Shown piece after piece: positions 40,441-64,000 of a stretch of DNA of 64,000 nucleotides. Every line of letters begins with the position of its first letter. Position 1 is the stretch's first letter. The DNA lies in the NCBI GenBank assembly GCA_902728285.1, contig CACVBU010000532.1, forward strand, positions 1,080,059 to 1,144,058, written 5' to 3'. The notes under the pieces were generated by a model. The model was not told where the DNA came from, searched no databases, and worked only from the letters and a program-made list of their open reading frames with translations. The stretch is from Clytia hemisphaerica (taxonomy: Eukaryota; Cnidaria; Hydrozoa; Leptothecata; Clytiidae). The position numbers and the translations under genes are program-made.

Positions 40441-40446
40441 AATCTG

Positions 40447-40726: not shown

Positions 40727-40838
40727 CTGTTACCAACTTTTCTCAGGATTGAATCATAGGAATCTTTTGATTTTTTCTTAGCTAAATTATTATTTTTTAT
40801 TATTGGAGTGTGGAATGTTAGGTATGAGGTTATAAATA

Positions 40839-41925: not shown

Positions 41926-43319
41926 CCCTAAAATGAAGATAATCCCTTTTTTTTTTCTCTCGAAAAAAATAATCTCTTAAAAATTTCGAAATTTTTACTT
42001 TAATCGAATTTTGAGATCGCTTCTCTTGGATTCGTTCAAACGAAAATTCATTGAAAAGGTTGATTAGAATCCGATAATTTGAACTTCTTTTTCTATGAAA
42101 ATTATAAAGAAGGTGCCATTTTCATTTGATGTCTTTAAAATAGTTACTGTAATGCTGTTAATTGGCTTGTTACTATTTTGCCCTGAGAAACCTATTTCCT
42201 TCGGATCAAATTTCCCCAAAATAGAAAATGTTTTATTAAATGTCTCTTCAAACAATCAAAACAAAAATTTTCCAAACATGGCTCACAAGTTGATTTATAA
42301 GGGTCACAGGTGACCCGTGCAAGTTGTGAATTTGCATGATGGAAAAAATATACACCTTTAGTCTAAATTCTTTTACACAGCATAAAAAATCTAAACAACT
42401 TTTACCTTGCACTTTTAGGGATTTAGTCCTCATACGCAGTTTGAGAAAACTTGATGACCCCATACACCAGTTATTATTCTTGATAGCTTAAATTTTTAGC
42501 TCTTCCCTTCATAGCATCTTGAATACAGCATGTTCCCAAGAATCTAGAAAACTGCAATACTTGTATTTTTGATAGTTTTGTTCAACTTGAAAACATTTCT
42601 TGCTGGGCCAGATAAATTTGATAAAAAAAAGTGAAAACTAGAAATTTAATTTCATTCATTTCTTGAAGTTTCTTTGACGTTTTGAATTTTTTTTACTATA
42701 CTTTTTACTATACATGGTGCAAAGAAGACACCGAAACGTCAAAAATGAATAAAAATAGAATTTCTAGTTTCAAATATTTATATATTTGTATATATAAATT
42801 TAAATATTTATATTTATTATACAAATATTTTGTTTATGCTAGATGTCATGGCGATTAATTTTTTTTTTAATGTCTAGTTAACCAGAAGGATCTTTTAGGA
42901 AGAGGGTTATTTCACAGTTTGTTGAGGAGCCCTTTTTTTCATCCGCAGTTGCGGGATTTTAGTCCACTTTCGAAGACGGTAATCACGGCCTTTATTCTGT
43001 AAAATTAGTATAGTCTGAATTACTGACCTCTAGAAAACCGCCTGTAGTATAGAAAGTAGTTTTCAGTCGATATATGGCTACAGGTAGCAAATTTCTGGAC
43101 GAAAAGGAAATACCGCTTAATCTAAAAAAAGACGGACTGCGGAAGCCTTTGACCCTCCCTCATTTTTATGAAGGACTAGTCCAATATGAGCAATTATTTT
43201 GAATTGAAGCAAATTTTAAGATTGCCCATTTAAGTAAAATCCCCTAATACGATAAACTCGACGTACTCGAGACCATGATATATCGAACGCAAAGAAGACG
43301 TAGAGCAGACATAATTCAT
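41926..43319. other. Spacer, repeat debris only
   Basis: No gene was recognised. A block around 43010-43140 (CAAATTTCTGGACGAAAAGG and flanks) recurs in diverged form at about 59350-59390, so it is probably an old repeat. A run of TATATAAATTTAAATATTTATAT near 42770-42830 is simple AT-rich sequence. Confidence 0.4.
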
Positions 43320-46228
43320 TTTATTTGTAATTTTTTATTATACTACAGATATTACAAAATAGTTAAGATTTGTTAAAAAATATAATTATAAGATATGTGT
43401 GACTATCTGGGTGGTGTTGGGTGTATTCTTTGATAAGCGTTGCCTGAAAAAAAAGAAAATCATGATTTAATTTTCAGACTCCCAATTTTAAGAATCATTT
43501 TCTTTTGAAGTTAATGACACTTCGAATTTATGAACACAATGAAAATAATCAGGTCAAAAAATGAGGAAGAACTGTATCATACTGTAAATGTCACGTGCTG
43601 TGGAGAACAACAAGAACTCATTTTCTTTCTTTTTAGACGAGAACAAGCGAGTGATAACAAGACAGTAGCGTACTCACCGATTGGTTTATTCAGCAGTGTA
43701 TAAGAAGGTATTTTCATTGTCTTCGTGTTCTACTGGTTGTTGTTCGTAATATTGATAGTTAGCGAATTCTTTTTCGGGGTCTTCTACTTCAAAGTTATCT
43801 TCAGGGATGACGGCTTCTGGATATTGCTCTACATCTAATTCTCGTTTTGGTCTTTGAATTCCACTTCTGACGTCAGTAGAGGCAAGAGCGTGTCCTGGGA
43901 ATCCCATAGTAGTAAACCCAGGGTGCGTGACTGGATGACCGTATGGAGTTGAGTGGCCACCATATCCTGGTGCGTCGACTGGTCCTGCTCCGACTGGGCC
44001 TGCGGGTCCAGCACCAGGGCCACCGAAGCCAAATTGACGTTTGTTAATAACAGATTTTTTGAAATGTTCTGGGATAGTTGCTGGACCTAAGTGACCCGTG
44101 AAAGTTGATGCAAGACCTCCCATACCACCTGTTTGGAATCCAAGTCGGTAGTTATCTCCACTGGCATATCCATAACCAACATGAACGGTTTGTTTCTTGG
44201 TGATATGATCACGTTGCTCTTTCTTAGTGGTTTTCTCCTCCTTTTTGCTATCTTTGGCTTTCACCCCTTTGGATCCTTCAACTTTCGATTTGATCCAAGG
44301 GAATCCCCATCCCCATTGGCCAAGACCAGTGCCAGGGTAACCATGGAAATAAGGCCATCCATAACCACCATAATGACCAATGGGTACACAGAAACGTTTG
44401 GTATGTTTCTTACCGTCTTTACTGACCATATCTCTGCAATGGAAAGCCATGGGTGGAGCTTGTTGTAAGACACTGGATCGACCCCATCCACCGCCACATC
44501 CACCTCCGCAGCCACCGCCGCCGCCGCCGCCGCCATAACCACCACCGTATCCTCCATCTCCATAACCACCGCCGCCGCCTCCCATGCCACCGCCTCCATA
44601 TCCTCCGTGATGGCCAATTCCTTCGTGACCACCATATCCATGCTCGTGTTCGTGCTCATGTTCATGATGGCCTTCATGGTGACCGTGTCCTTGGTGACCG
44701 TGGTGACCGCCTCCTTCTTCTTCTCCCCATTCATGCACGAAACCATGGTGATGTCCGTGATGGTGGTGACCATGTTCGTGTTCATGATGACCGTGATGGT
44801 GACCGTGTCCTTCGTGTCCCTCTTCGTGTCCCTCTTCGTGACCTTCTTCACCGCAACCACCACCGTATGGTGATCTTTTGCAGAGATCAGATCGTTTGTT
44901 GCCCGTATCTTCTCCCTCTTCCGCTTCTTCGTCAGATTGGTCCTGGTTTTCTTCATTGGCTCCGTCATCCTCTTCACTAGTGTTTCCTTCTTCGCTGCTT
45001 TCTGCTGGCTCCTCTTCGCCTTCCATTGAAGGGACCTCAGTTTTTTTGGTCAGTTCTGTTTTTGAAGAACTGTCTTCTTCTTCTGGCTTTTTAGATTCTT
45101 CTTTTTCTTCTTGACTCTCTTTTTCTTGATTGTCATCAGCTTCGTCGTCTTGGTTGTCGCCTTCGTCGGGAATATCATCAGCTTTCGTGATGGCATCTTT
45201 GCCGACTGCTTCGTCGCTCTACAGATTAATAATAATGAGGTCTAACCAAAATGCAAAGAAACTATACTCTATTGAAGTTAGTCACAACCTGTGACGTGTC
45301 AGCGTCATCATATACCAACAGTTTAGGTGGAAAATGTCTTCTGAAAATCAATGTCTACGCGTTTCTAAAATACTTCTACCTGGTATCATTATAACAGACG
45401 GGATAACAACCTTAAATTATTTAGCAAATCAAAAACCATGACTTAGAAGGAGGATGCTGCTCGAAATTAACTACGGAAGAAAATTTTACCTCTCCTTCAG
45501 GAGCTTCATCTTCTTCTTTGACTTCTTCTTCGATCAAATTTCTTTTGCTGCCACTTCCACTCCCTGATTCTATAGAAAGAAAAATGAAAAATTATACCTT
45601 ATAGGCAGTAATAGAACGCGCAAGTATTATGCTTTAATTTCAATAAATCTTTATCACGCATTGGATAAAATGTTTATGAGTTTCTACGTGTATGAGACCA
45701 GGTGTTTGTGAATGACACCGTGAATTTTTAAAGATACCGACTATTGGTTTAAAATCATCATTATGAACCTTGAGCCATCACCGCTCATATTGCTACTAAG
45801 GACTAAGGGAAACAAAGGTTGTACAAATACTTGCATTACTACTGATATACTGGGAGGTTTAGCGAATACAAAATGATTACGAAGTGGTATTTTCGCATCA
45901 TTTTGGCCATTTAATTCTCCAAAGGTTTTATTCACGCGAAATAAGGAGAATAGCCAATGAAGTTTGGTTCGTTTGTATTATTTCAACTGGATCTTTGAAT
46001 GGTGTCGCTTAGAGATAATCGGGGAAGCTTATCAGATGACTGACCTCAGGAAAGTGATGACATACCTTCGGCTGTGGTTTCTTCTTCATTCTCCAATTCA
46101 TCTCCTGCATCTTCTTCGTTGATTCTCACTTCCAAAAGTTCATCATTCTCCTCACCACGTGCGATGGGAAAACTGTACACGTGGTCTAGTGCCAGTCCCA
46201 ATAATAAGAAATATAACAATATCCTCAT
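43320..46228 (-). CDS. Secreted acidic Gly/His-rich protein, three coding exons
   Basis: The coding exons are 46066-46228, 45491-45570 and 43686-45218, with phases 1 and 0. Together they give 592 codons (591 residues). Exon 1 holds a signal peptide (MRILLYFLLLGLALDHVYS) and a Glu-rich propeptide-like start. Exon 2 has a short GSGSGSKR stretch, then Glu-rich sequence. Exon 3 continues strongly acidic, then RSPYGGGCGEEGHEEGH, a long His/Gly/Glu segment, Gly/Tyr repeats, CGGGCGGG, a Cys pair in FHCRDM and RFCVPIG, a Lys-rich stretch and Pro/Gly-rich sequence before an acidic tail. Several dibasic sites (KR) occur. A 3' UTR intron starts 8 bases after the stop (43678|GTGAGT), resuming at 43443, with AATAAA near 43320. 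Metal or mineral binding in an extracellular matrix is plausible from composition, but it is inference. Confidence 0.8.
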
Positions 46229-46670
46229 TGTTTGTTTTTATTACCCCCAATTATCAAGAAAAAATATAAATTTTATCCTTTATGAGGGTAAACTTTTTTT
46301 CTAATTCGAAGTTTTTTTTGTTTCATTAATTAATGCTGAAGAAAACGTTTGTTTCACCTGCAGTTTCATAGCACGCTCAATTAACCCTCATATTCTGTAT
46401 GGTTGCTATGGTAACCAAAATTCTTTTGAGTGGAGGTTACAGACAAAACGAAAGTTCTTGTCTTCGAACATTCGAACGGACTAAACAAAAGAGATGTTTA
46501 GACAAACAAAGGTGCTCTCGTGAAATTATTCGACTCTCGAACTGTGAAGAGGCAGTCAAACCACTGTTTTATTTATTGTACTTAAATCATTATTTAAGCA
46601 ATATGAGAAGGATGATACATGTTTTTTATAAGAACATAACGCTTCGATGGCCAAAATGTTAAGAACAATA

Positions 46671-47224: not shown

Positions 47225-48073
47225 TTAGACAAAAGAAATGCGACCAGTAACTTGAGTGGGTCCTCGTCCATAACTGCTCATTTGTTGGGTGACCCAAGAC
47301 TTCTTCGTCTTTCCTTTGTACCCGACAATGACGTACGACGAACGATATTGACGTTGGAAAGGGCGCTTACCACCGATCGCTTCCAATGCTTTCTGACAAT
47401 CAGACGTAAACGCCAAAGTGGCCTCGTCCTGGTAGGCTCCAAGCACGATGGTGCTATAAATTGAAAGTCAAAATAACTAATGTCATTCAAAAAACATACC
47501 TTTTAAAACTGAGTATGTAAACCAGTCAGGTGCAAATTAAAACGTTCGCTTATTGCTCAAAGTTTTTATTGGCAACTGTGATTATTTTCCGAATTTTACC
47601 TGGTAAGGAATGTTTTCAGCTTGAAATGATATGATATCTTAGATCTTTTTATGATTACTTTTAAGCTGAATTACAAATTGGGTTTCAACAGGATGTAGAT
47701 GTACTAACCCATCATTTAGACTGTTGGTCCACTTTAAAGCATTGGTGCATTCATTTCTGTAATAGTGCCAATCGAATGACGCGCTTCCCACAATGGTACC
47801 TTCAATAAAACAAAAAAAGATTTTCGATGAGAACATATAAGACCAGCTCACGATCATTTTAGAATGCATAATGCCAAGAGTGATCATGCAAACCGGTGTC
47901 AAATTGCTCCGCAGATACTTTCTTACCTCTGCTACCATCGATTGCGACGAAATTGATTCCTCTTCTTTGTTTACTGTAATCTTTCCCTTCCACTTTGATG
48001 GTGGAGATACCACATCCACTGGTTTTCCCTGGATCGCCACAACCTTCTGAACGGATCTCGTATTTGATGCCAT
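47225..48073 (-). CDS. Exons 13-15 of the mosaic gene: FAM3/ILEI-type C-terminal domain
   Basis: The exons are 47927-48073, 47709-47799 and 47225-47453 (stop at 47225-47227). The protein reads KYEIRSEGCGD, ISTIKVEGKDYSKQRRGINF, VAIDGSRG, then LGAYQDEATLAF, ALEAIGG and YRSSYVIVGYKGK, ending GRISFV. In order, these fit the interleukin-like EMT inducer (FAM3/PANDER) fold. The blocks are the strand with V.VNG, the RGxNxVxID block, the DEA block and the second strand with S.V..GYKG. Such domains occur in secreted signalling proteins and some lectin-like or glycan-modifying enzymes. An extra Cys-containing insert (YYRNECTNALKW) sits in exon 14. Confidence 0.7.
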
Positions 48074-51000
48074 CTGTAGTGATCATTTAAAAGGAAAATG
48101 TAAACTTTAACAAAGTTGTCGGACCAATAAGAAATAAATAAAGAATGAACAAATAAGATGGCATTTCCAAGGCAACGGAAAAGAAAGTATTGCTGCCCTC
48201 TATAGAGTGTGAAGGTATGGTCAAATTTCCCCTTACGAAATTTATTCCCTTATGATTTCCCCCCGGCTTGTTTTTTTTTCACAAAAAGGTAAAACATTAC
48301 CTCTATTATAATCATTTATCTTACCAAAATTGCAATCTTTGACATCAGTTAGGCCTTGTCGTTTCCCATTTGAACTCGGACATTTAATACAATCCTGACT
48401 TTCCAAAGAAGGTTGGTAGGTTCCTGATGGGCATTGTGTGCAAGGTGCAAGACCGTTCTTTGAGTATGTTCCAGGATGACAAATCGCTGAAACGGTTAAT
48501 GAATAAGCTGATGAAGAGGTCAACTTCAGGAAAGAACCTTTGTGACCTAATAAATGTGACTAAATGGGCGATTACAAGAGTGTTTGAATATTGAAATTAG
48601 ACCTTTTTCTTAGGGCAACAATTTGATGGTAGACAAGAAGTGGGGCCGTTACCTTTGCATCTATGGAAATCCGATGATAAAGTCCCTTTGGTTGTTTCAC
48701 CTTGCGGACAATTTTCACAAGACAATGCACCTTCTCTGTTTTGAAAAAATCCTGGTTGACAAACTGTACATTTCTTTGTTTCACTCTGATAGAACGTTCC
48801 ACTGGGACATTGCACTGTAAAAGAAGATGAAAAAAATGAAACCAAATACTGTATTCACTTTCGAGATCTCGAATGTTTCGAGACATTTATTCATTCAGAA
48901 AAGTCCCAAATTTTGAGGATTTTAAGGAAAAGGCTTTGCTAAGTAAATAACTGTAAATCTACAAAAACCGTTCTCATTGAACTTACAGCACTTGATGGTT
49001 CCATTCACAGATTGGAGTTCAGAACCTTGTTTGCATGAGATGGAAGGTTTTTGTGAGTTCACTTTCACACTGTTGTCTTTCAATACTTTGACCGCTGTGC
49101 TTGTCACCTGAATTCAAATAGTAAGAGAATTACGTCTGTTGTTATGCACTAACTCTTTTATCTGAAGATATTACCGATTCTGGATTCAACGTCGTCCCAG
49201 TGTATCCTAGGCTTTATTTTCGTCATTTGAAAGACGCCAAAGAAGATTATCTGGCGCTATCAGCAAGCATTGAAAATCTGATTAAACGCTGTAAACGAGG
49301 CTGTTCTCGATCAACAGTTCACATACCAGACTAGAAGACATAGGAGAAAAGGGAAGTAGAAATGATACCTTTTGAACAATTGCTGTCTTTTGAAGTTCCA
49401 ACGCCTGTGTCAACGTGTTCAACTGCTTAAGATTGTCTTTATCGAGAACTCCTTGATTCAATGTCTTGCGAACAGATATGGAGAACTTGATGACCATCTG
49501 ATCTTTACTATTGGTGCTTCTCTTTGTCTTCTTGGAACAATACACAACAGCATTCTCCACATCACATTGTTGTTGTTGTGAGCAGAATGCTGCTCCCCAA
49601 ATGAAATCTTTCTTCAACGTTGCTACAAAATCACGCTTCAACTTTTCCATAGAGGCTTGGTCTGAACATTTGCCACTGAAGATTTGCATATCTAGCGCCA
49701 CGCTGTTTGGTGACTTGCCCACTAAAGACAGAAATTTTGTGAACATATATGATAGCTAACAATGTTTATTACACATTTTTTCATTATAAGAAACTCAAAC
49801 TTTCGCGTCAGGGTTGAGGTTGCTTAGTATTCTAGCTCATTTTGTGAAAAAGTATCCTTGATATTATACCATGTTTATGCTTATTGGGTCAAGAGTAACC
49901 TGAATGACCAAGCTGTAAATTGCTTTGTATTTTGATGTTTTCAATAGCTTGGTCTACCTAGATGCTTGTAAACCCGGGGCCGGTAAATTTTTAGCTTTTA
50001 TTGAATTATTAAATCGACAAAGTACGCATGCGCTGTCTCCGATTTTAGAATATAAATCGATTTAGGATTTAGGAAGACTGAAGGAAACCAGGAACGTCTA
50101 AAAGAAAAAAAAGTTTACAGCTTAGATATCCAGGCTAGGCCTGCCATGGTTAACTTATACTTTACGAGATAGTGAAAAAAAATGGCTAATCTGAGCCCTT
50201 TAGCCTTACCAATACAAGCTGGTTATTTATATAAAAAATGTGTAATATAAGATAAAATATCTTCAAACTAAACTATTAAACCTCTCGTCTTGATGTGTCT
50301 ATAGGCTGCTAAAATCTTTTATACACTATTGTGATTATAAACCAAAGATAAATTATATGCGAAGGAGTTAATGCGAACACTTAGGAATCTACACTTGGCT
50401 TTAAACCCGAGAAAATCATCAGAGATACCTGAGCAGTCTGGCCACATAGGATCTCCTCTATTGATAGGAACCATATGAGAGTGTACCAAGTTGTCAAAGT
50501 TGAAAACACTTGCACCTTGCCACGCTCCATCCATCGAACACACATACAAATTGTACACTTTGGCAATGTTTGCACCCTCCAGAAACCATGAACCTTTTTG
50601 ACAAGCTGCAGTACAAATGAAAGCTTCAACTTTCCCGTTGTTCTTAATGTTGCATGTGGCGGAACCATGCTTGGGTGGCGCATCCACTGGGCATTTCAAC
50701 ACTAGAAAATTAATTAGTTAAAAGTTTCGATGGCCCTCACATGTTCATCAGAAACATAGTAAAACCTGTTTTTAGGTAATATAACCCAGGATGAATTATT
50801 TTGAAAAGACACTCTATTGCCTTTCTTTTAATTTTTCTTTGCTACCTAACTTTGACAATAACGAATGCCATGTTTTTTATTTACTTACTTTGGAGCTCGA
50901 ATGTCATGGTGCAGTTTTCAGTATTGGATGATTTATCTCTGGCTTTGATATCAACACTGTGTTTCCCTTGGTAGAACTTAGTTCCATTCACCACCGAAGG

Positions 51001-54000
51001 GATGAAGACCAACTCGTTGTCAGCCTCTACATTGTCTGTGAAGCGTGGCATGGGCCAAAATACTTGGTGTGGGAATAACCCTGTTTTGATGATTCGATGT
51101 TTTTTGGGGCAATATGTTACAACTGGTGCCTCGTGATCTAAAAATGGGTTTGAGGGTTTAAAATAGGAAATCGTTTCATTTCTAAAGCCTTGTCAACATC
51201 TTGAAGATTCAAAATTATTGCTACCGGTAATAAAAAGTATGAACAGTATAAAAGAAGTGAGAACATATTGTGCTGGTGGCAGTCTTACATCTTTACTAGT
51301 TAAAATTCCAATGACTTCTTTTCATCTCGGTAAAATAACTTGCTAAACCTAAGCCTTAAGACGGTCCTGACTAACAAAACCTATAACCAAACGCTGTAAT
51401 GATATTCAAAAATGTCTACCTTTGACGATGAATTTCCGTTTGCATTTATTGGTGTTTCCAACAGCATCAGTAGCAGTGTAAGTAACTTCAACTGGATGGT
51501 GAACGAACACTTTCAGTGGTGATGGATGACTTGTGGTGATTGTCACTGGAAAACCTGAATTATCGGTTGCCGTCGCATTGGGGAATGAGATGATGGAGTA
51601 ATTGGTGCCTGGCTTGTTGTTGACGGTTGGAATTGGCAATTTAGGACATGTTATCGTCGGTGGCTCAGAATCTAAAAATATGGTGCCATAATGAGTGAAA
51701 AACAAAGTCAGACGAGCGAAGTTCAGTGGAAATAGTGTATTTTGAATATCTTGGTTTCTTATCATAACATGTAATTGGAATACTTTCCAGGAGAAATTGT
51801 TAAATTCTACGATAAATTTCGATAGAATGGTTTGCAATGACAAGTTTTGTTGTATCTTACCTTTACAATACCCTAGTTTTCCTGTCCATTTTCCTGATCC
51901 GTGACACGTGACATGGTTTTGACCAATTAGCTTGTAGCCTTTCTTACAGTCAATGCGACAGACAGATGTACATGAGCTGTCTACTCCATTGCATGCTTTG
52001 TCGAGGTGGATGGAGTTTGGTGATAACTTGATTGCTGGACATTTGATCACTGGAAATATATTCGAAGACGTAAGATATAGTGGAGTCTCTTTATCTCGAA
52101 CCTCTATAACTTAAATGTCTCCTTAACTCGAACAAATCGCGTGTCCGAGTTATGGAGACTCCGCTGTACTACCATAGATCAAAAGTTTATAGTTTGCCAT
52201 ATTTTAACACCCGAAATTTTTGTTTTGATTTGGCTCATATGTACTGCTGACTTCTCGGAAACTCACAATTTGATGTTCGCTAAATGATAAGAATCAGAGA
52301 GACATTTATAAGGTAACTATGATGAAGATACAACATCGAGTCAAAGTTGTCAACCTTTTTTTCTATACTCGTTCTTGGTAGGTGGGCAATCTTTTCCTAC
52401 ACCATTGCAGCTCTTGTAAGCCTCAATATATTTGATTTTGAAATCATATGTTTTGGTCCTCTTCTCATTCGGGCAGCTTCCCGTCCATGTGTCGATATTC
52501 CAAGATGTCCAACTTCTCTCTGTGCATTCCTTCGTCGGACATTTACCTGAATGTAGAAAGCTTATTCGGTTAAAAGAAGGCTTCTTTGAGATTGTCAAAA
52601 CAGATAGATCTTGACATAGCTTTCTCACACTTTTTGATTGAATCAAACGCTTATTCGTTTCAAAAATATTTTGAAAATTCCTTCTTCAAGAAGCGCAGAC
52701 TATGAAACAACAGACCAACTAAAACTAACAAATAATTGTTTTTAAAAGTCGAATCGACGAAAATTTTATCTTACAGAAAGTTCTTGTATCAGTGATTCTT
52801 GGTGGTCGACAATCAGGATCGATGCCAAAGCAAGCCACTTCTCCTTTCTTCTGTTCTTTCATAACGTAAGTGTATGAAGGCTTTTTGTCTTGGTGTCGTG
52901 TTTGGTCTTTACATTGTCCATTACCGACTGCTGGTGTCCACGAACTCCATGGTGCTACTGGACAACTACTGGCTTTTCTGCAATTACCTACAAATCATGA
53001 AAAGTATAGGAGGCATGATTTAACTGGATTTCCTGAAATGTCTTTTAAAGTGGAGAGAATTTACCTACAGATTAAAAAACAGTATTCCATGTATGAGAAG
53101 TTGATATTTAAAATAATCATTATCATAATACGCTTAAATCCGAACTCTCTCATTCTTAGTCTGAATCGCAGACCTCTACAAAACCTCTGGTAGTATAGGT
53201 CTGCTTAATGATCTACCAAACGCTTTCCGATTCGTTTTTTTTTTAATTCGATGTATTTTACAGAATCTTAGCGAGTAAATAATTTTATTGACATTGATGT
53301 GCGCGCAAAGACGACCGTTTCGAACGTTTTCAATAGAATGTTTACATTCGAAATTCGAATCCAAGACCAGAAAAACAAAACAGAAATAAAGATAAAAAAC
53401 AATCTGATGCGCGCATTTTGTACAGTCTGTAGATTTATTTTTCACTTTTGCTTTTATAAGATATCTGGTCTGTAAATTTATCCTTCAGCTCTTCGGTCGA
53501 AGCTCAAAAATACAAATATGAACAAAAGAAAACAACCAAAAACACTCCAATCTCTTCAAAAGGCAGAAGCAGCCACCGACCTAAAATTTGCAAATATCTG
53601 TTCTGATTTGCCAGCTGGAAGGATTTCCCCGAAATTAAGAACAGTTCCTCGTTTTCCAGGGGAGAAATTTTTACTTCAAAACAGTTATATTTTTCCAGCT
53701 AGGGGGTAAAAAAACTTCCGGAACAGGTACGAAATTACCAGGCGATTGATTTTTTTATGCGAGTTAAAGGCAATAGCGCTATACTTATAGTAGGGGTCGG
53801 ATTTGATGGTACTTCCATGGTATACTCTGAAATACATGCTGATGTCAGCCCGAAAGCTGATTGGCTTAACCGACAATTATACGCGGTTTAAGAGTATAGC
53901 TAAAACTTTGTTATGTTTTCAACAGTAAACGAAAGTGAATGAAGACAAAATGTAAACAAAAAGATTGCAAAGAAGTTTTCGAATATATTCACAATAGAAT

Positions 54001-57000
54001 GTCTTCATTTAAAAAAATAGAAACACTCGATTTCATTCAAAAGAAAAATACATTCCTTTTTTTCTTTCAGTTTTATGTAAGTCTTTTTGTGTTGTTGTTG
54101 AACATTATAGTAAACTAGCCGTCCCGGCGTCGTCCGAGACGACTTCTTACTCCTTTTAATACACTCGCTTCGCTCGCTTTTCTATTTTTCAGAAACTTGT
54201 AGGGATTTGTATACAAATGTACTTATTTTGCGAGAAGAAATGTTCTTAAATTTAGGCCTTTTTCGTAAAAATTGATGTTTAAAATTTTTAAGGGGACACT
54301 AAAATTAATGCACATTAAAAAATATGGTGAAAGTATTTTTAGTTGAATTTTGATTTTTCTTCTCCTTAGGGAGTGGTCAGAAAGTATCTACTAGGGGGGA
54401 GTGGAGGATATTTTGAAAAATCCCAAAATACTTTCGCACCCCCTCCCCTAAACTGGAAAAAAAATTCGAACCGCCCCTCATAAGGCCCAATATTTTTTCG
54501 CACCCCCCCCCCACTAGAAAAATTTTTACGCAAAAAAAGAATTCATACAGATGCGGTACAAAGAGTATTATTTGTTTGTATGACAGTTTTTATGTCAAAA
54601 TTAGGTAAGGGAGATAGTTTAGCCCTGTAAAGTTGAGTATAGTCCTTTAGGAGATCTACCATTTTGATTGACGTTTACACCACGGGATTTTTTCCGTCGA
54701 TTTCCATGGTTACGACGGAATTTCTCTGAAGTAAACAAAATAAAAAAACCCGTGGTGTAAACGTCAATCAAAATGGTAGATCTCCTATAGGAATAGTCCT
54801 GGGTTAAAATAAGAATCAACGAGTTATTTTCTCTGAGTTTCCCAAAGTTTTGGGAGAAAATTACGGCTTATTTTCCCTGATACATAATCTCCCTACATTA
54901 CAGAGGCATTACTCAATTACTCAAAATATTGAAAATTTTGAAGATCAGGTACTCGAGACCCTAAAATACAAGCTATTCTGTTGTTAAAAGGAGTCTGAGA
55001 AATGAAATTCTCTGAGTTTGAAATTTCCCTATAAACCTATATTTTCAGGTTTTCCAGGGTCTGTCAAAGCTCTGTGTATATAATTTATAAGATATTAGTA
55101 GAGACTAAGGAGGCACAACCATGGTTTGCGCCGACGGGAAGAAATGTCGATGTTTTTCACCACCATTTTAGCTTAAAGACACTTTGTTTTGACAAATTTC
55201 TTTCTAAAAAGTACTTTTTCAAACCACTCTGATGAGCTGTGAAAGCCACTAATCTACTTCCCTCATTTAGCTCAATGCTACAAACCAAAAGGGCAAGGCG
55301 ATGATGCCCAAATAATGTTAGTATGACATGTACATATATGAAATAAAATAAATTCTGAGTTGTCGGCCGTCAGGCCGAAAAATTTTTGAAATTTTGAAAC
55401 GTAAAACTATGAAATTAGACCTTCCTACATTTTCTCTTGAGGTGCCCAAAAGATTGGAACCCCCCCTCTCAACCCTCAAAAAAAATTTGAAACCCCCCCT
55501 AAACCCGCGAAAAAAATTTGGAACCCCCCACCCCCCTAGAATCCTCCACCCCCCCCCCTAGTAGATCTTTCTGACCACTCCTTATTAAATTGTATAAATT
55601 TGTCATAATTTTTTTTGTTGAAAACCTTCAAAACAATACTGTTCTGACTCGCTAAAAATACTAATGGCAAATATTGGGTGAAAATTGAGTTTAAAAATTT
55701 CTCGCGAGAAATCGGTCATACTTAAACGTGCTTTTTTTTGGGTTTTTGGGAGAGGAAAGACTATTATTTTCCTCACGCAAGGATGAAGATAAAAAACAAA
55801 CAGAAATTCAAATTCAGTATTAGAGGTACTTGGCAACACCGATCACTCCAAAGACCACAGTGCTTTACGGTGGAATATAAAGAGTGCCTTTTTTCAATAC
55901 CTCTTAACAGAGTCAACAATTATTTAACAATTAAACTCAATGCGTAAGTAAAAGCGTTTTCATTTTGCTATCTCAATAGAACAAAAAATAGCAAACATTG
56001 ATTAAAAAATTTCATAATTGAATTGGGAATAAGCATCAACTTTTTTCATATTGTCAAGTCCATTAAATTGAAATGTTTTTATCAGAGTATCAAAAGAAGG
56101 GAAATGTCATCGGAGCTTTACTAATCTCAAGGGTAATCATAAATATGATGTCTTTTTGAAAACTCAAATTTTATCTTCGACGTATTCCCATGTGAATCAA
56201 AATTATTTCATAACCGACATAAACTTTTTTTTTAAAAACTATAAATTATGCTGATAGTGCTATTGCACAGTCAGTTGTGTTTCTCCATCAAGGAGAAATG
56301 TGCTCTCTTGAATGGAAGTGCACTTGGCGAATAGAATTGAATATACAATCAAAAAGGCGCGAAAAAAATTGCCGTGTATTTAAAAATCGCTAGCGAAAAA
56401 GCCTCATGCGAGAATGGGAGAGTTCCGATTTAAGCGTATTATAATATAGATTATATAGATTATATTCACTTTTTTGAATATATTTTTTGGAATTAAGTCA
56501 CTTTTGGTTTTTGTTATGATCCAGCACTCCTAAATACTCCTCCGTATGGGTGTTTGTGCCAATGCTAGATCAGCATTTAATAAATATACCATGCGTCGTT
56601 CCCTTTAACTGTTCTTATTACCAGGGCTGACAAAATCTTATAAGAACAGATCGCTAAATTCCAGCTTGACTGAAGGACTTTTAAGAACAGAAACTTAATT
56701 TCCCAGCTAACAGTTTAAGAGGCCCCCCCCAGCGGACCCAAATTTCACGCATTCACGCAAAAAATTTTCGCAATTCACGCATTCACGCAAGTTTTTCTCG
56801 AAATTCACGCAAACCCAATTTTTTGGAAAATCGGGGAAATTTTCGGAAAAAATCGGGGAAAATCTCAAAAATAGAGGTGTTGCACATTTCGCTAAGTTAC
56901 GTAATTTACGTAATTTCCGCCATTATTGAGTAAAACGTTCGATTTGCATAAAAAAGTATGACAAAGGCTGTACTCGGATATTATTCGACCGGATCTGGTC

Positions 57001-60000
57001 TATGCACCTTGAGAAAAAAACTAACTCAGTAGTGATTTTTTCCTGAGACCTGACTATAAAACACCGTGGTTTTTGTTTTTTAGCGTCATAAGAAGCCCCC
57101 AAATAGAAAGCGTTGCGTAATTTTTCAACTTTAATTACATGCCATCATGCAAAATATTTGATTCTTCTAACTTGTCACGATCATTTGGAAAAGGTAAAGC
57201 TTCTGCAGTTAACGTATCGCGATAGTAAGTGAAAAGATATGCACCGCAGGCGAATTTTTGTACATAAAATAGCTTAAACATTATCAAAAATAGGTCAAAC
57301 AAACTCGAGGATGACACTATGATGCTTAGCTCAGGGGTAAGGAGGCGCAACCATGGTTTACGCAGAGAGGAAATTTTTGCATTTTTGTCACTCGCGTTTG
57401 GCTAAAAATGCTCTCTTTAACACCATTGAAAAAGAATGTAGTCTAAATTCGTTAGGCAAGGTACGATCGCTTGATAGCTTGTAAAATAAGGTAAAAGAAT
57501 GAACATTTGTTGCGAGCAAAGCGATCAAAAAAATTTAAAAAGAAAGGTTTTAATCAGGGCCCGCGAATTAATTTCCTAACGTGGAGGGGCCGAAAACATA
57601 GTGACTAAGGAGGCGCAACCATGTTTTACGCCGACAGGAGAAAATTTCTATTTCAACCCTCTGACGTGCTTAAATACGACTCCATTTCAGACTAATTTTA
57701 CCAAGAAATCAGGTTAAACGATATTCTACATCATGGGTAAAAATTTCTTTGAAATAAATTTCTTTTAATTTGCAAAAACGTGGTGAAGTCATGGCTGCCT
57801 CCTGCCCCCAGTGGCTCTAGCCCTGGCTGGCCCTGGCCCTGGCTGGCCCTGACCCTGGATCACTCATCATGCATAACCATGGTTTTATCTTAAACAAACA
57901 CTTTCAAGGGGGCAAATTAGAGTTATTTAAGATTCGAGGGCCAATACATGTTTGGCATGAGCGAAAAAATCTGGAAATTTAAGGTGTCTAGATTGCTAGA
58001 AAGCGCATCTAAATCATGAATCGTTATATAAAATAGAGAATTTGAAAGTTGCTGATTTTTTTGTGCACCTTCACCTGGCATCCCTTGTATTCGGGATAGG
58101 TGCGCACCTTGGGGTTTTCTACAAACTGTGAAAAGGAAAAATTCACGCGTGCACGCAAAAAACAGGGCAGATTCACGCATTCACGCAATGGAAATATGGA
58201 TTTTCACGTTCACGCAAGTTTTTTCAATTCACGCATTCACGCAATTTTTTTTCGATTTTCACGCATTCACGCAACCAAAAAAGCCCATTCACGCATTCAC
58301 GCAAACCGCTGGGGGGCCCCGTTTAAATATCTGTGCGAACAGATCAACAATTTCCAGATGTTCTACTTAGATGGAGAATTTTGAGCTGCCACTCAAGGCA
58401 ACCACATTCAGAAGGAAAAGAACAGATATTTTAAGAAAGATTTTTTGACTTTTTTGAAATTCCCTCAGAACAGGTAGGAAATTCTTAAACACCTTATTTT
58501 TTGGATATCAAACTATATTTTCATAAGAACAGATCATATTTTTCCAGCTGGTCCCAATCTTCAATAGAACAGATCATAATTTTCCAGCTGGTGTCCCAAT
58601 CTTTAGTAGAACAGACCACTTTTTTCCAGCAGACTTTTTTCTTTAGTTCGCTAAGAACAGACCACCATATCCAGCTGGAACGTGCCTTCAAAACAGATAT
58701 TTTGAAGTCCCCCTTCGGTGAATGCTTTCGAAAAGGATTGAAGCTAAGTACATGAAAAAGATAAACACAAAGGCCACACAATATCGAAAAGTGAAATGCC
58801 AAAGCTGAAGAAACGTTTTTTGTTTGTTTTAACATTTAACAAGGGAACAACAACACTCCCTTTTGTAGAATCATAAAGAAGTAATGTCAGAAATATTCAA
58901 TATGACCCCCAAAATGTACTGTATAAACATAACTAGAATACCTTGAAATGATCTACAATATATCTGTAGAACTGACAAAACAATTATCTGGAGCCAAAGT
59001 GATCAAAGAATCCCCAGTGTGGTTATAAATTATACACTCATACAAGTCCAAATTCAAGCATCAAAATGTAGTTTTATGAAGCAAAATTTTGTTGATGCAC
59101 ACAGAAGATACATCAGGGCACTTAAATTCAATTTAAATTTAATTTCTAATCTTTTACAAAATCTCCACATTAAACAAGAAAGGAGGAAGAAAAATAAGCA
59201 AACTTCCTTCCGCCTACTTTTTTTCGAAATCTAAATATATTTTCCAATCTATGATTCGATGCCTCACAGAAAATGTAAACATTACGTAATGTTATATTTG
59301 TAGACACTCGTCAGCTAAAAATGTCTTTAGCCGTATATCGGCTAAAGGCGGGAAATCTCTGGACAAAGGAAATATCGCTTATTAAGCATCATCTATAAGG
59401 AGCACGAGTCCGTTAGTGGATGCCAGCAGCCTATCTCATTCTTGCATAAAGCTTTTTCGTTAGCGATTTTTTCTCGAACTCTTTTTCGCGCCTTTTCTGT
59501 ATTTGGTCTTTCAATTGGTCAATTTTCAGCCTTAAAATGAAAACCGTGAAAACATGTATTTTTTCGTTCCTTTTTTCTAATCTTATTTTTTGAACATTTT
59601 CAAGAGCGCTTTGAAATTTAACACTCATTTTCTTTTTCTTTTTCATTTTCAAATAACTTTCAAAGCCACCCACGAATGTCCACCCACCATCGCTAGCCAC
59701 GATGGCTGAACAACTCCTAGCATAAGGATTATTCTTGTAAAATTATAGTTTTAGTCTATTAAAATATGCCAGTTTCGATTCGGTTTGCTTTCAAAATAAC
59801 TCCTTTTTTAACTTTCTTGCAAAATCAACTTGGTGAAAGGGTGAAAGTAGCAAAAAATTAATTTAGACAATTTTCTTGAAACATTTTATCTTATGTAATT
59901 TTTTCCTTGGAAAATACAAGAAATTGTCTTGGCCGATTTTCCTTTAAAAATACAAGAATTTGCTTTAGGTTGTTTCTATTACCAAAAAAAGAAAATGTAT

Positions 60001-62292
60001 TTTGTCTAATTTTCCTTGGAAACTACAAGACATACATAATTTTCCTTGGAAAATGCAGGAAACTGCGTTTTATAATCAATGTTCCAATCAATATGCAAGA
60101 AAATATTGTAGTTTTTTTTTCCTTGGAAAATACAAGAAATCATTTACACATCTCTCATAAGGAAGAAATACATTTGATGTCTCAATAATGACAGCGAGCG
60201 AAGCGAGCTTGATTATCATTGTAAAGAGTCATCTCAAGAGACGATTCCAGGACGGCTAATTGAAATATTAATATTAGTAGATCAAATTGCCACCGAAACT
60301 ATGTAAACAAAAAGCTGAAAGACTTCAGGATATAACTTACACATGGTTCGATCTTCTGAGTTGTAACTTCCATTGCATTGGCCTTTTACTCCACTACAAC
60401 TTCCATATCTTTCCACATATCTTGCTCTGTCTTTCTCAGCTCGTCTACGATGTTGTTTTCCACAGGTCCCTTGTGTTATTGAACCTGTCCAAGCTCCCCA
60501 ACTAGCCCACCAACAATTCGTGACCTCTCTGCATGAACCTACAATCGAAAAGAATTAAGAGTTTGCAAAAGTAAAGATTCAAGAGGCGTTATGTTATAGA
60601 TTTCCACAGAGTTTGTCCTTTTTGTCTCACTTTGAACAATTCAGCTCCTTGCTATTTTTCAAAATTTATTTTCTTTTTTTTTATCTACGATGTGTTCTGA
60701 AATTTAGGATATGAAACTTACATTACATCAAACAGAACTTTTACAGTTTTACAGTTGACTCTTTTTCCTCAAAAGCTTTGTGCTTTTGAAACACGAAATT
60801 AGTAACATTTAATTTTTGCCCTTATTAAAGATAAAATGAAGACGAGTGAAAATAGCTTGGTAAAGTGTTGTCCTTGTAACAGAAAACACTTCAGCTCCAT
60901 TTCATCTCCTTTCACTGTAGAATATCTTTTCCATAGCTTCATGAAAAGTTACACTCCCTAAATGGTTTTTAATATTTTTTTCATCTCCCCAAGGAGATTT
61001 TGATGTAAGGAAGAAATGAAAAGTGCGTTTCTGGAATCAGCAAGGTTCAAAATATCTTTGACCAAAAGTCAATTTCATTTTATAGTGAAAACGGATAAAA
61101 AGATCATTCTTTCTTCTTCATCTTTTATTTTCGTTTTTCAAATTTTGGAGAATTTCTTTCATGAAAATTATAGTGCGTGGTAATATTTCATCAGCAATTC
61201 CAATTTTATCGTAATCGGAGCATGAGCTGATAATTCGAATGGTGTTTAGTCAGGGTAATTTCTAAGTCTCAACAAAACCCACTTACACGCTGTTCTCGTT
61301 TTATCAACTTCCCTACATCTTGTACTTCTGCAACTCCCCACTTTCATTTTAGGTATATTGATGTGAACCACTTTATTGATTTGTTTGATGCATTTCCCTT
61401 CAGGGATGACGGTAGGCTGGTAACCAGCGTAACGGGCCTGGCAACGTATCTCCACACATGGTTTCGGAAACCACACAGCCAATGAAAATTCAGGAATCAA
61501 TAAAGTAAGTAACAAGTGAAAATATTTCATTTCGCTATCATCGATGTTACCTTTCTTCAATTGAAATTAAATTCTTAAACCTTTACTTTTCGGGTTGAAA
61601 AACAAACAGTAATAATTCTTCTGTTGCCTAGTTTTCTTTTTCTCTCATTAAAATTTTCGCGTCTTATCTGCTAACTTGACCTTTTGCTTGGTCTGAGGCT
61701 TGTTAATGGCTTCCAAAATTTCCACTTGCTAGTGTTTTTACAAATTAGTAAAGATGGCTACCATTGTCGACCAATCAACGGATACTCATTTTTGAAAACG
61801 CCTTCAGCGAGCTATGCAAGATTTGATTTCCCCACTGATGATCTGTGTAAAAGTTCAGGCCCAGGAACTGGCTCACCTTATCGGGACCAGTTATCTTAGC
61901 ATGGTGAAATGAGGTTAACTGAAGGTCTAAGCGGCTAACTTTTTCACTGTGGCACAGAAAACAATCGGGAAAATGTTAGCGGGAAGACACGAAAAAATGG
62001 GGTACTACTTACATTTTAGTCGTTCTCGATTGACTTCATTACAAAGAGTATTTTTACAGCCTCCTGACTTCACAGTATGTTTCATGCTGTAAATTACTTC
62101 ATCCACTTGTGTGATGCATTGTCCTGTGGGTGGCGCTGTGGTCGGTTTATACGAACCCTTATATCTTGCAGTGCAGTGAAATTCTATGCAAAAGTTTTTA
62201 ACAAATGAAAAATGGAGAACTATAATTAACAATGGTAGGTAGGTGCTTCTATACCGTGCCATTGCTGTAGTTTTTCTTGAAATTAACTCCAA
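47225..62292 (-). CDS. Large secreted extracellular mosaic protein: TSP1-sushi-HYR-ephrin-like-FAM3
   Basis: I joined fifteen coding segments with matching phases: a leader exon (62013-62292, or alternatively 61287-61560), 60341-60538, 52775-52987, 52355-52546, 51861-52049, 51420-51671, 50889-51137, 50393-50701, 49369-49721, 48987-49107, 48653-48814, 48325-48486, 47927-48073, 47709-47799 and 47225-47453. Totals are 3147 or 3141 bases, so 1048 or 1046 residues. Most junctions are phase 1, as usual for shuffled extracellular modules. Order: signal peptide and Cys leader domain, three TSP1-like, sushi, two HYR, sushi-like, a domain of unknown type, two ephrin-receptor-like Cys modules, FAM3/ILEI-type end. 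No transmembrane segment follows the leader, so it is probably a secreted matrix or defence protein. The 3' donor of exon 52355-52546 is weak (GTTGAC) and that of 50393-50701 is GTAGAT. I know no named protein with this order. Confidence 0.8.
48325..48814 (-). CDS. Exons 11-12: two ephrin-receptor-like Cys modules
   Basis: The exons are 48653-48814 and 48325-48486, both 162 bases. The first reads CPSGTFYQSETKKCTVCQPG, then FFQNREGALSCENCPQGETT. The second reads CHPGTYSKNGLAPCTQCPSG, then TYQPSLESQDCIKCPSSNGK. The CxxGxY/F...CxxCxxGxxQ...CxxCP pattern is that of the ephrin-receptor-like (GCC2/GCC3) module, found for instance in SVEP1-like proteins. Equal exon lengths and phases point to exon duplication. 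Confidence 0.8.
48987..49721 (-). CDS. Exons 9-10: module of unknown type
   Basis: The exons are 49369-49721 and 48987-49107, joined in phase 0, the only phase-0 junction in the gene. About 157 residues are encoded: SPNSVALDMQIFSGKCSDQA, a KLKRDFVATLKKDF helix-like stretch, QQQQCDVENAVVYC, VIKFSISVRKTL and a Gln/Leu-rich helix. I do not recognise the fold. SVEP1-like proteins also have an unassigned stretch between HYR and ephrin-like modules, which may be comparable. Confidence 0.65.
50393..50701 (-). CDS. Exon 8: sushi-like module
   Basis: The encoded segment opens LKCPVDAPPKHGSATCNIKN, continues with ICTAACQKGSWF and VCSMDGAWQG, and ends DCSGISDDFLGFKAK. Cys and Trp placement is sushi-like (C, C, C, ...CxxDGxWxG...C). 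A phase-1 donor (AAGT|GTAGAT) is chosen because it alone keeps the downstream frame. An in-frame read-through to a stop at 50319 would give a truncated protein if the donor is unused. Confidence 0.65.
50889..51671 (-). CDS. Exons 6-7: two HYR domains
   Basis: Exon 51420-51671 encodes SEPPTITCPKLPIPTVNN, FPNATATDNSGFPVTIT, HHPVEVTYTATDAVGNTNKC and FIVK, a complete HYR (hyalin repeat) domain of Ig-like fold. Exon 50889-51137 encodes a diverged second one: EAPVVTYCPKKHRIIKTG, FTDNVEADNELVF, and IKARDKSSNTENCTMTFEL. HYR domains often pair with sushi modules and mediate adhesion. Confidence 0.85.
51861..52049 (-). CDS. Exon 5: sushi/CCP module
   Basis: This exon encodes one CCP module: IKCPAIKLSPNSIHLDKACN, CRIDCKKGYKLIGQNHVTCH and SGKWTGKLGYCK. 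The four-cysteine frame with GYKLIG and the W of GKWTG is standard for complement control modules. Donor CAAAG|GTAAGA style ends keep phase 1. Confidence 0.85.
52355..52987 (-). CDS. Exons 3-4: two TSP1-like modules
   Basis: Exon 52775-52987 encodes CPVAPWSSWTPAVGNGQCKD, then QTRHQ and two further Cys, a recognisable thrombospondin type 1 repeat with the WSSW motif. Exon 52355-52546 encodes CTERSWTSWNIDTWTGSCPN, then EKRTKTY and CNGVGKDCPP, a more diverged one. WxxW motifs are the usual sites of C-mannosylation. Confidence 0.75.
54369..55581. mobile_element. Harbinger-like 1.2-kb TIR element in intron 2
   Basis: The left end is GGGAGTGGTCAGAAAG, followed by TCTACTAGGGGGG. The right end is the inverse (CTGACCACTCC preceded by CCCCCTAGTAGATCTTT). 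TTA flanks both sides (54366-54368 and 55582-55584). A TTA/TAA duplication with a GG start is typical of PIF/Harbinger. The interior is C-rich near both ends and hosts a second MITE (54650-54785). No transposase is seen. Confidence 0.75.
54650..54785. mobile_element. 136-bp mariner-type MITE nested in the Harbinger-like element
   Basis: The ends are GGAGATCTACCATTTTGATT, continuing GACGTTTACACCACGGG, and their exact inverse. TA flanks both sides (54648-54649 and 54786-54787). The two arms of 38 bases are identical, suggesting a recent insertion. Confidence 0.85.
56719..58320. mobile_element. ATTCACGCA-family TIR element, 1.6 kb, 6-bp target duplication
   Basis: The ends are GAGGCCCCCCCCAGCGG and CCGCTGGGGGGCCCC. 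GTTTAA flanks both sides (56713-56718 and 58321-58326). Near both ends are arrays of ATTCACGCATTCACGCAA (56752-56815 and about 58140-58310), all in the same orientation. Inside, two copies of TAAGGAGGCGCAACCATG (about 57340 and 57606) recur, and a variant lies outside at about 55110. No transposase was recognised. A 334-bp relative is at 36230-36563. Confidence 0.8.
58400..58700. repeat. AGAACAGATC...TTTCCAGCTGG degenerate tandem repeats
   Basis: About five diverged units of roughly 50 bases each hold AGAACAGA (CAGATCATAATTTTCCAGCT in the clearest units) and end CAGCTGG, followed by TCCCAATCTT. Related single units occur at 53590-53705 and 56610-56720, all within intron 2. Confidence 0.7.
59893..60150. 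repeat. TTTTCCTTGGAAAATACAAG degenerate tandem repeats
   Basis: About six units hold CCTTGGAAAATACAAGAAAT or variants. TTTTCCTTGGAAAA is itself a palindrome. The spacing varies from about 40 to 80 bases. They lie in intron 2 of the mosaic gene, just upstream of exon 2. Confidence 0.75.
60341..60538 (-). CDS. Exon 2: first TSP1-like module
   Basis: The encoded segment begins SCREVTNCWWASWGAWTGS, then CGKQHRRRAEKDRA, CSGVKGQC and ends near DRTM. WASWGAW followed by CGxQxRRR is the TSP1 signature, here with a divergent second half. Phase 1 at both ends; the T left by either leader exon completes a Cys codon. Confidence 0.75.
61287..61560 (-). CDS. Alternative leader exon 1b of the mosaic gene
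   Basis: A signal peptide starting at the ATG at 61530 (MKYFHLLLTLLIPEFSLA; an upstream in-frame ATG lies at 61560) is followed by KPCVEIRCQARYAGYQPTVI, GKCIKQINKVV and CRSTRCREVDKTRTAC. The exon ends GCGT|GTAAGT in phase 1. The Cys domain aligns throughout with the one in exon 1a, giving the shared pattern CxExxCxARY, PTxxPxGxCIxQ, CxxTxCxEV and RxxC. It has its own leader, so it cannot be an internal exon after 1a. Confidence 0.75.
61561..62012. other. Interval between the two leader exons
   Basis: No exon was found. If leader 1b is used, its promoter must lie here. I see no clear TATA or initiator motif. Confidence 0.4.
62013..62292 (-). CDS. Alternative leader exon 1a of the mosaic gene
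   Basis: A signal peptide from the ATG at 62292 or 62262 (MARYRSTYLPLLIIVLHFSF) is followed by CIEFHCTARYKGSYKPTTAP, PTGQCITQVDEV and CKNTLCNEVNRERLKC. The exon ends AAAT|GTAAGT in phase 1, matching exon 2. It duplicates exon 1b about 730 bases away. The two are probably alternative first exons of one gene. The Cys domain is not one that I can name. Confidence 0.75.
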
Positions 62293-62704: not shown

Positions 62705-64000
62705 GGACCTACCCCGGTGGGGTGGAGGTCCTATAAATTAACCCATGTTCGATAGTTAGTTAGTTAGTTAGTTACCAGCTTTTCTCGAGATTGGCTCATT
62801 AGTTTTTTCTGATTTTTGGCACAAAGGTGCATGACCATAAACCCTCGAATGTGACGGAGCCCGATTTTCGAAAAAAAAATTTTTGGGCAAATTTGGGCCA
62901 AAAAACGGCTTAAAAACGGGTTTCTTGGACTCTGTGAAAAATTGGATCATTAATTTTTTCTGATTTTTAGCATGAAAGTAGGGTACAATCATAGTTAAAG
63001 GATGGCTCAAGCAGATTTTTGCCGAAAATTTTTTTTGGCTCAAAAAGCGCATTTTTATCTATAAGAACCACTTTTAATAAGAATACATTAATGTTCTTAG
63101 CCATATTATTATTATTTTTGGACCTACCTCCGGGTGCCCCGGTGGAGGTCCTATAAATTAACACATGTCCGTTCGTTCGTCCGTCCGTCTGTTACCAGCT
63201 TTTCTCAGGATTGGCTCATTAGTTTTTTCTGATTTTTTGCACAATGATGCAAAATGGCAATGCCCAGAACGTGACGGAGCCCGATTTTTGAGAAAAAATT
63301 TATTTGGGCAAATTTGGGCCAAAAACTACCTAAAAATAGGGTTTTTTGGACTTTGTGCAAAATCCTGTCATTACTTTTTCCTGATTTTTTGTACAAAGAT
63401 GGAGGGCAAGATTCTCTAAAGAATGGCTGAAATGGTTTTTCCCGGAAAATTCTTATTCGCCTTAAAAAACGGATTTTCGTATTTTGGGGGAAATTCCCTT
63501 TAACCAAATAAGAAAATATAGCTTTTAACAATGTTGACTCATTATTTTTTTCTGATTTTTTGCACAATTATGCAAAATGGCAATGCCTAAAATGTGTCGG
63601 AGCCCGATTTTCGAAAAAAAATATATTTGGGCAAATTTGGGCCAAAAACTGCCTAAAAATAGGGTTTTTTGGACTTCGTGCAAAATCCTGTCATTACTTT
63701 TTTCTGATTTTTTGTTCAAAGATGGAGGGCAAGATTCTCTAAAGAATGGCTGATGTGGTTTTTCCCGGAAAATTCTTTTTCGCCTTAAAAAACGGATTTT
63801 CGTATTTTGGGGAAATCCCCTTTAACCAGATAAGAAAATATAGCCCTATCTCAAAGTTGACTCATCATTTTTTTCTGATTTTTTGCACAATGATGCAAAA
63901 TGGTAATGCCTAAAATGTGACGGAGCCAGATTTTCGAAAAAAAATATATTTGGGCAAATTTGGACCAAAAACTGCCTTAAATAGGGTTTTTTGGACTTTG
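62705..64000. repeat. Hairpin head plus ~323-bp tandem repeats, running off the window
   Basis: Two heads, GGACCTACC...GGTGGAGGTCC (hairpins at 62705 and 63120), are each followed by TATAAATTAAC, a tetranucleotide run (GTTA at 62756; CGTT/CCGT at 63170) and CTGTTACCAGCTTTTCTC. After the second head, units of about 323 bases repeat, with the anchor GTGACGGAGC or its variant at 63271, 63595 and 63917; a first diverged unit has it at 62851. Unit landmarks are TTTTTTCTGATTTTTTGCAC, ATTTGGGCAAATTTGGGCC and GGAGGGCAAGATTCTC. No protein is encoded. Confidence 0.85.

What the first reader, a model, noticed from the sequence alone, without database searches (positions are those of the whole stretch)
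47225..62292. Previously unnamed extracellular mosaic ending in a FAM3/ILEI-type domain
TSP1 x3, sushi, HYR x2, sushi-like, an unassigned module, ephrin-like x2 and FAM3/ILEI-type domain. I know SVEP1-like proteins with sushi, HYR and ephrin-like modules in a similar order, but not with TSP1 in front and FAM3 at the end. FAM3 domains are in cytokine-like proteins, so this could be a matrix-anchored signal.
Basis: partly seen in the sequence, partly recalled or inferred. Interest (0 to 1): 0.75.

Follow-up and report, generated by a model that had tools for sequence, protein, structure and literature searches.

The report
Polydom-core jellyfish protein, FAM3 tail
This is a real jellyfish gene for a probably secreted protein whose middle is the core of the known extracellular protein Polydom (SVEP1), fitted with thrombospondin-like repeats in front and a possibly sugar-binding FAM3-type domain at the end: a new variant of a known family rather than a new kind of protein.

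Summary
Fifteen minus-strand exons (62262-47225) splice into one 1026-aa open frame. With another first exon (61530-61287) the 1024-aa product is identical to a database protein named SVEP1-like [Clytia (P0001), on a contig of the same length as the window's. Pfam confirms Ephrin_rec_like x2, ILEI/FAM3 (67.3 bits, cut-off 27), HYR x2 and Sushi; TSP1 is only weakly supported. Six database proteins share the chain from TSR-like module 2 to ILEI. Nematostella proteins with this core but no vWFA or pentraxin, some with TSR, are in print (PMC12549020); the text I searched does not mention ILEI or FAM3. New points: FAM3 sugar-site residues are kept; module X bears a convertase-type loop site in 5 of 9 proteins and a weaker one here, in line with the reported cutting of Polydom; two homologous first exons. 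Best reading: secreted Polydom-core adhesion protein, perhaps cut, with a lectin-like tail. Signalling is unproven.

The parts
62013..62262 (-).
   Evidence: Open frame and GTAAGT donor; homologous to E1b (mature-module score 123, best of 1000 shuffles 20). Not in P0001.
61287..61530 (-). Exon E1b: alternative first exon, probable signal peptide plus the same module; used by the database protein
   Evidence: Chain with E1b identical to P0001; GTAAGT donor in the same phase.
60341..60538 (-). Exon E2: TSR-like module 1
   Evidence: Identical in P0001; cysteine and tryptophan pattern shared by the 13 modules aligned.
52775..52987 (-). Exon E3: TSR-like module 2
   Evidence: Identical in P0001; 68 of 71 residues shared with paralogue P0002.
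52355..52546 (-). Exon E4: TSR-like module 3 (donor GTTGACAA, supported by P0001)
51861..52049 (-). Exon E5: sushi (CCP) module 1
   Evidence: Pfam Sushi 1.8e-4; start of the SVEP1 alignment.
51420..51671 (-). Exon E6: HYR module 1
   Evidence: Pfam HYR, 2 stretches.
50889..51137 (-). Exon E7: HYR module 2
   Evidence: Pfam HYR, 2 stretches.
50429..50701 (-). Exon E8: sushi-like module 2, ends WPDCS like the SVEP1-like proteins (WPDCA/S)
   Evidence: Collinear alignment with SVEP1-like proteins.
49369..49721 (-).
   Evidence: hhalign with SVEP1-like X 8.7e-9; low-confidence models; basic-site scan.
48987..49107 (-). Exon E10: end of module X up to the first ephrin-like module
   Evidence: Identical in P0001; inside the SVEP1 alignment.
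48653..48814 (-). Exon E11: ephrin-receptor-like module 1
   Evidence: Pfam PF07699, best stretch.
48325..48486 (-). Exon E12: ephrin-receptor-like module 2
   Evidence: Pfam PF07699, second stretch; SVEP1 alignment.
47927..48073 (-). Exon E13: ILEI/FAM3-type domain, first part
   Evidence: Pfam PF15711 residues 909-998; PDB FAM3A 1.4e-8.
47709..47799 (-). Exon E14: ILEI/FAM3-type domain, second part
47225..47453 (-). Exon E15: ILEI/FAM3-type domain, last part, stop

Best explanation
One Clytia gene makes a probably secreted, cysteine-rich extracellular protein built on the Polydom/SVEP1 core (sushi-HYR-HYR-sushi-X-Eph-Eph). The vWFA, EGF and pentraxin parts are absent; TSR-like modules stand in front and a FAM3/ILEI-type domain closes it. 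Proposed working (inferred): it is exported by a signal peptide from one of two alternative first exons; a proprotein convertase may cut it in the basic loop of module X into an N-terminal TSR-sushi-HYR part and a C-terminal Eph-ILEI part, which may stay together; the TSR and HYR side holds matrix or cell surface and the ILEI domain binds sugar (GlcNAc-type), so the protein tethers glycan-bearing cells or matrix, as an adhesion or epithelial-remodelling protein. Shown: gene structure, domains other than TSR, conservation in six database proteins, homology to the SVEP1 core, conserved sugar-site residues. Inferred: export, cutting, binding, place and role.
For: Single gene. Domains; best fold matches FAM3B 1.8e-8, FAM3C and POMGnT1 stem 1.1e-7. 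SVEP1 core: 3 of 3 SVEP1-like proteins compared align collinearly, 565-602 columns, E 4e-46 to 4e-62; module X by itself 8.7e-9. Family: six database proteins share the chain from TSR-like module 2 on; P0002 lies on contig C500 of the same genome. Sugar site: R, D and R are invariant in 13 of 13 ILEI domains aligned and are R, D, R in the printed FAM3A, B and C alignments; PMC9802357 (abstract and passages) reports GlcNAc binding by FAM3C and worm Fam3L2 and names POMGnT1 R129, D179, R207. Cutting: RX[KR]R occurs once, and only in the X loop, in 5 of 9 proteins; Polydom is cut into 115-kD and 270-kD parts on secretion (PMC10281526, passages). No membrane-like stretch past the N-terminus (best 19-residue hydropathy 0.81 beyond residue 40).
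Against: The window's own loop has only KTKR, not RX[KR]R, and that looser pattern occurs three more times in the protein; P0004 has KKKR there and one other; P0005 and P0006 lack the site. The Polydom cut site was not located in what I could read (not held). TSR assignment is weak. Models are of low confidence (mean pLDDT 63 and 67). A Hydra mesoglea proteome paper says TSR proteins were not found there, and its text has no sushi, SVEP1 or polydom (PMC6079037, passage search). Sugar binding is carried over from other proteins.
Confidence: 0.6

Rival explanations
1. Matrix-bound signal: the protein stores a FAM3-type ligand in the matrix, and cutting in module X frees the Eph-ILEI part, which acts on a receptor.
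For: The basic loop lies between the N-terminal modules and Eph-ILEI. FAM3 members are described as signalling molecules (PMC9802357, abstract).
Against: No receptor known here. ILEI domains also stand repeated in other cnidarian mosaics with WSC and F5/8C-type (P0144) or PA14-type (P0145) Pfam domains, which suits binding modules better. Cysteines inside X could keep the halves together (inference).
Confidence: 0.15
2. Recognition factor of innate immunity: sushi, TSR and a lectin-like domain bind microbes or foreign cells.
For: PMC12549020 (section 8 part 1) cites the Hydractinia Polydom as an i-cell factor potentially involved in innate immunity; sugar-site residues conserved; many places in this genome match the Polydom core.
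Against: No expression or challenge data here. Cysteines and many other columns are invariant among the seven aligned sequences; no selection analysis was made.
Confidence: 0.2
3. Two genes wrongly read as one, the ILEI end belonging to a neighbour.
For: Only that no RNA reads could be seen; database proteins may be gene predictions.
Against: Same order through ILEI in six database proteins, one on a 3688-base contig with no room for introns; phases fit at every junction.
Confidence: 0.02

Closest known systems
Polydom-like and Polydom-related proteins of Nematostella (PMC12549020; section 8 part 1 read, passages; figures not held)
   Same: Sushi-HYR-ephrin-type core, no vWFA, no pentraxin; some carry TSR at an end
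   Different: The four Polydom-like ones share EGF modules; the EGF-less Polydom-related one is core only. ILEI, FAM3 and interleukin have 0 hits in the text, and the legend of its Figure 4E lists no such domain. The window gene has no EGF match and ends in ILEI.
Polydom / SVEP1
   Same: Collinear sushi-HYR-HYR-sushi-X-Eph-Eph, 25-29% identity over 565-602 columns; basic loop in X in 3 of 3 SVEP1-like proteins
   Different: No vWFA, EGF or pentraxin match and no sushi array; TSR-like modules and ILEI instead
FAM3 / ILEI proteins and the POMGnT1 stem domain
   Same: ILEI domain by profile, PDB sequence and fold; R, D, R positions
   Different: There a small secreted protein or an enzyme stem; here the last module of a large mosaic
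Coral ILEI mosaics P0144 (Montipora) and P0145 (Dendronephthya)
   Same: ILEI, 31-42% identity to the window's
   Different: Three and two ILEI near the front, with WSC, F5/8C, EGF or PA14-type Pfam domains listed; no sushi, HYR or ephrin-like family listed

Membership tests
Polydom-like (cnidarian, sense of PMC12549020) | Sushi-HYR-ephrin-type core | tested here: met
   Pfam; collinear SVEP1 alignment
Polydom-like (cnidarian, sense of PMC12549020) | No vWFA, no pentraxin | tested here: met
   Neither family scores at E up to 1 in the 1026-aa protein
Polydom-like (cnidarian, sense of PMC12549020) | EGF-like modules (absent only in the Polydom-related protein) | tested here: not met
   No EGF family at E up to 1. 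So it is not filed under the four Polydom-like proteins, but as a variant on the same core
Polydom/SVEP1 proper | N-terminal vWFA and central pentraxin | tested here: not met
FAM3/ILEI domain | PF15711 above its gathering score | tested here: met
   67.3 bits against 27
FAM3/ILEI domain | FAM3/POMGnT1-stem fold | tested here: met
   Top Foldseek rows FAM3B, FAM3C, POMGnT1; model mean pLDDT 63
FAM3 cytokine-like proteins | Small secreted protein (recalled size, single domain) | tested here: not met
   Here a 1026-aa mosaic
FAM3 cytokine-like proteins | Acts as a signal | not testable with these tools
   Needs assays
Thrombospondin type 1 repeat | Profile match | tested here: inconclusive
   Whole protein and TSR piece: no hit at E up to 1. 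Per module: TSP1_spondin 2 of 13 (best 0.0046), TSP_1 1 of 13 (0.01). PDB: only hit F-spondin TSR, E 0.79. 13 of the 16 modules in P0001-P0006 were given
Thrombospondin type 1 repeat | Tryptophans, arginines and cysteines in order (pattern recalled) | tested here: inconclusive
   Invariant C, C, C, W, W, C, R, Y, C, C, R, C in 13 of 13 modules aligned; not compared column by column with known TSRs except F-spondin
SEA domain (module X) | SEA fold with cleavage loop between strands 2 and 3 (recalled) | tested here: inconclusive

The most novel reading that the evidence does not exclude
A cnidarian branch built on the Polydom core is a convertase-cut, two-part adhesion system: a TSR-HYR anchor made with either of two interchangeable N-termini, and an Eph-ILEI part with a GlcNAc-type lectin site that can be released or presented. 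Module X, without a Pfam name, would be a conserved processing domain of Polydoms from cnidarians to mammals, and FAM3-type domains would have been matrix lectins before they became cytokine-like.
Probability: 0.3. Interest if true: 0.6.

Novelty: new variant of a known kind. Interest (0 to 1): 0.42.

Why it matters
It puts a FAM3-type domain in a large extracellular protein of a cnidarian, whereas one paper derives the FAM3 family from a POMGnT1-like gene early in the chordate line (PMC9802357, discussion passage); coral and Clytia ILEI mosaics give that question an outgroup. It also points to module X as a candidate cutting place of Polydom, which in mammals binds integrin alpha9beta1 and Tie1 (PMC10281526, passages).

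Tried and rejected
Two-gene reading: rejected. E1a and E1b spliced in series: not favoured; it would put the second hydrophobic start inside the protein, and P0001 starts at E1b. E1 module as a fourth TSR: hhalign E 0.0057 but probability 6%, left open. Module X as a named family: of 6 members scanned, only scattered one-member matches, best 0.021; no PDB sequence at E up to 1; fold only a common arrangement. A PDB search with A4 told nothing on X because whole proteins filled the profile. The search with A1 was swamped by HYR proteins: 621 hits, best 120 listed, none beyond P0001-P0005 listing PF15711. Canonical SVEP1 in this genome: query P0149 (32 of 487 candidates scored) gave mostly EGF; C566 and C777 match EGF and, up to query residue 1362-1363, part of what follows, but no core in the 30 kb and 5.9 kb fetched; C654 and C38 carry N-side, core or EGF-side Polydom pieces, not assembled further. 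The full chain outside hydrozoans was not found, which limit candidates by length and shared words. Species names of P0004-P0006 were cut off and P0003 has none; calling P0005 and P0006 Hydra-like is my inference. Literature, an open-licence library only, ten searches: 'ILEI domain' in 0 papers; FAM3 with other terms of this gene listed 3 papers, all with 0 FAM3; of 10 papers with two of PANDER, cnidarian, ILEI, none held cnidarian. So I know of no paper joining FAM3/ILEI to a Polydom core, on these searches. RGD at 594 of P0001 is not kept in P0002-P0006.

Full report
What was checked. I read the sequence, placed exons at GT...AG sites and spliced them. One frame of 1026 aa stays open. Introns are phase 1 except E9/E10 (phase 0) and E14/E15 (phase 2). 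The longest, between E2 and E3, is about 7.35 kb.

One gene, known to the databases. A search of the spliced protein gave 29 proteins at E up to 0.001. Six (P0001-P0006) were fetched and aligned; the other 23 were not fetched then and, by their listed Pfam domains, are mostly HYR proteins. P0001 (1024 aa, name cut after SVEP1-like [Clytia) is identical to the chain built with E1b; its contig length, 1,506,789, equals that of the contig holding the window. The species Clytia hemisphaerica is inferred from the cut name. P0002 and P0003 begin at TSR-like module 2 and have two ILEI domains; P0004, P0005 and P0006 cover the whole chain and are 45, 41 and 39% identical to the window protein. Names of P0004-P0006 were cut before the organism, so that they are hydrozoan is an inference. 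P0003 packs 1029 aa into a 3688-base contig, as a transcript would.

Two first exons. Their mature modules score 123 against a best of 20 in 1000 shuffles. Over 78 aligned codons, differences are 38, 30 and 43 at positions 1, 2 and 3: a mild excess at position 3, so constraint is suggested, not proven. They look like duplicated alternative first exons. Whether E1a is used is unknown.

Domains. Pfam: ephrin-like x2, ILEI, HYR x2 and sushi, all over their cut-offs. ILEI hits FAM3A at 1.4e-8 and, more weakly, FAM3C, FAM3B, TMEM2 and POMGnT1 (0.0063) in PDB sequences; the model's best fold matches are FAM3B, FAM3C and the POMGnT1 stem (mean pLDDT 63). The TSR-like modules are divergent: nothing in the whole-protein scan or in the TSR piece, weak TSP1_spondin and TSP_1 matches in 2 and 1 of 13 modules, and F-spondin as the only PDB hit at E 0.79. 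I gave 13 of the 16 modules in P0001-P0006; twelve columns are invariant in them, seven of these cysteines and two tryptophans. I take them as divergent TSRs, without proof.

The core is Polydom. With the C-terminal half of P0004 as query, 19 proteins came back. Three named or built like SVEP1 (P0146, P0148, P0149) were compared: the window protein aligns collinearly at 25-29% over 565-602 columns, E 4e-46 to 4e-62, from sushi 1 or within it to the second ephrin-like module. Module X alone matches between the P0001-P0006 set and the three SVEP1-like proteins (hhalign 8.7e-9 over 77 columns). PMC12549020 (section 8 part 1 read; passages; figures not held) describes an expanded Polydom family in Nematostella: four shorter Polydom-like sequences lack vWFA and pentraxin, share EGF-sushi-HYR-ephrin-type parts and bear ends such as TSR or Ig-like; a Polydom-related protein lacks EGF. 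So TSR with a Polydom core is in print. FAM3, ILEI and interleukin do not occur in that text, nor ILEI in the legend's domain list.

Family in the genome. PF15711 finds 12 places in the genome, the window's own included. C500 holds the paralogue P0002, the contig lengths agreeing at 576,036. A Polydom-core query finds 44 places (86 of 132 candidates scored), many of them single modules; C654 and C38 carry further Polydom-type pieces. P0001 as a genome query did not complete, so the family was not counted.

Sugar site. PMC9802357 (abstract and passages) reports that FAM3C, FAM3A and the worm Fam3L2 domain bind GlcNAc and that POMGnT1 R129, D179 and R207 make the site. In 13 of 13 ILEI domains (the window's, seven from P0002-P0006, three from P0144, two from P0145) the R, D and R positions, 909, 960 and 988 of the window protein, are invariant, and FAM3A, B and C show R, D, R in the printed alignments. 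The POMGnT1 alignment itself was not printed, so its numbering is matched by motif. The coral proteins carry two or three ILEI domains together with WSC, F5/8C or PA14-type domains. I read this as favouring a binding role over a cytokine role.

Verdict. The gene and its FAM3-type end are real and shared by six database proteins. It stands on the Polydom core but fails the EGF feature of the four Polydom-like proteins and the vWFA and pentraxin features of Polydom, and it ends in ILEI: a new variant of a known kind. Function is inferred: secreted adhesion or remodelling protein with a lectin-like tail, perhaps cut in module X.

Noticed in passing
window 52770-53003; C500 paralogue: Exon E3 (TSR-like module 2) with 16 and 5 flanking bases is 94.4% identical in DNA to the paralogue on C500 over 234 bases; the other matched exons reach 70-76% and no other collinear intron match was found. 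68 of 71 residues are shared against 43-69% in the other exons. Looks like recent exon conversion or transfer.
   Followed up: partly
G000 C500 near 543034-543239 (in L012): The paralogue's TSR1 exon is split between two frames in this assembly, which may explain why its model P0002 starts at TSR2; could be an assembly error.
   Followed up: partly
window 34129-41976, minus: Repeated pieces of an unnamed gene family (LIPSQSYTKE...CLLRCGK and SGGI.C...WGCHH or WGCDH stretches); five pieces scanned, no Pfam match at E up to 0.01.
   Followed up: no
window 43689-46237, minus: Very acidic, then His/Gly-rich open frame of 510 aa with KR pairs, with an acidic piece upstream that starts like a signal peptide; the 510-aa frame has no Pfam match at E up to 0.01.
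   Followed up: no
window 22665-23717, minus: Open frame of a rhodopsin-type receptor, 7tm_1 1.8e-10.
   Followed up: no
window 3506-5140 minus; 13233-13772 plus: Retrotransposon-type pieces: endonuclease and reverse transcriptase.
   Followed up: no
window 40447-40726; 63211-63998: CGTT repeat of about 70 copies and a 323-base tandem repeat.
   Followed up: no
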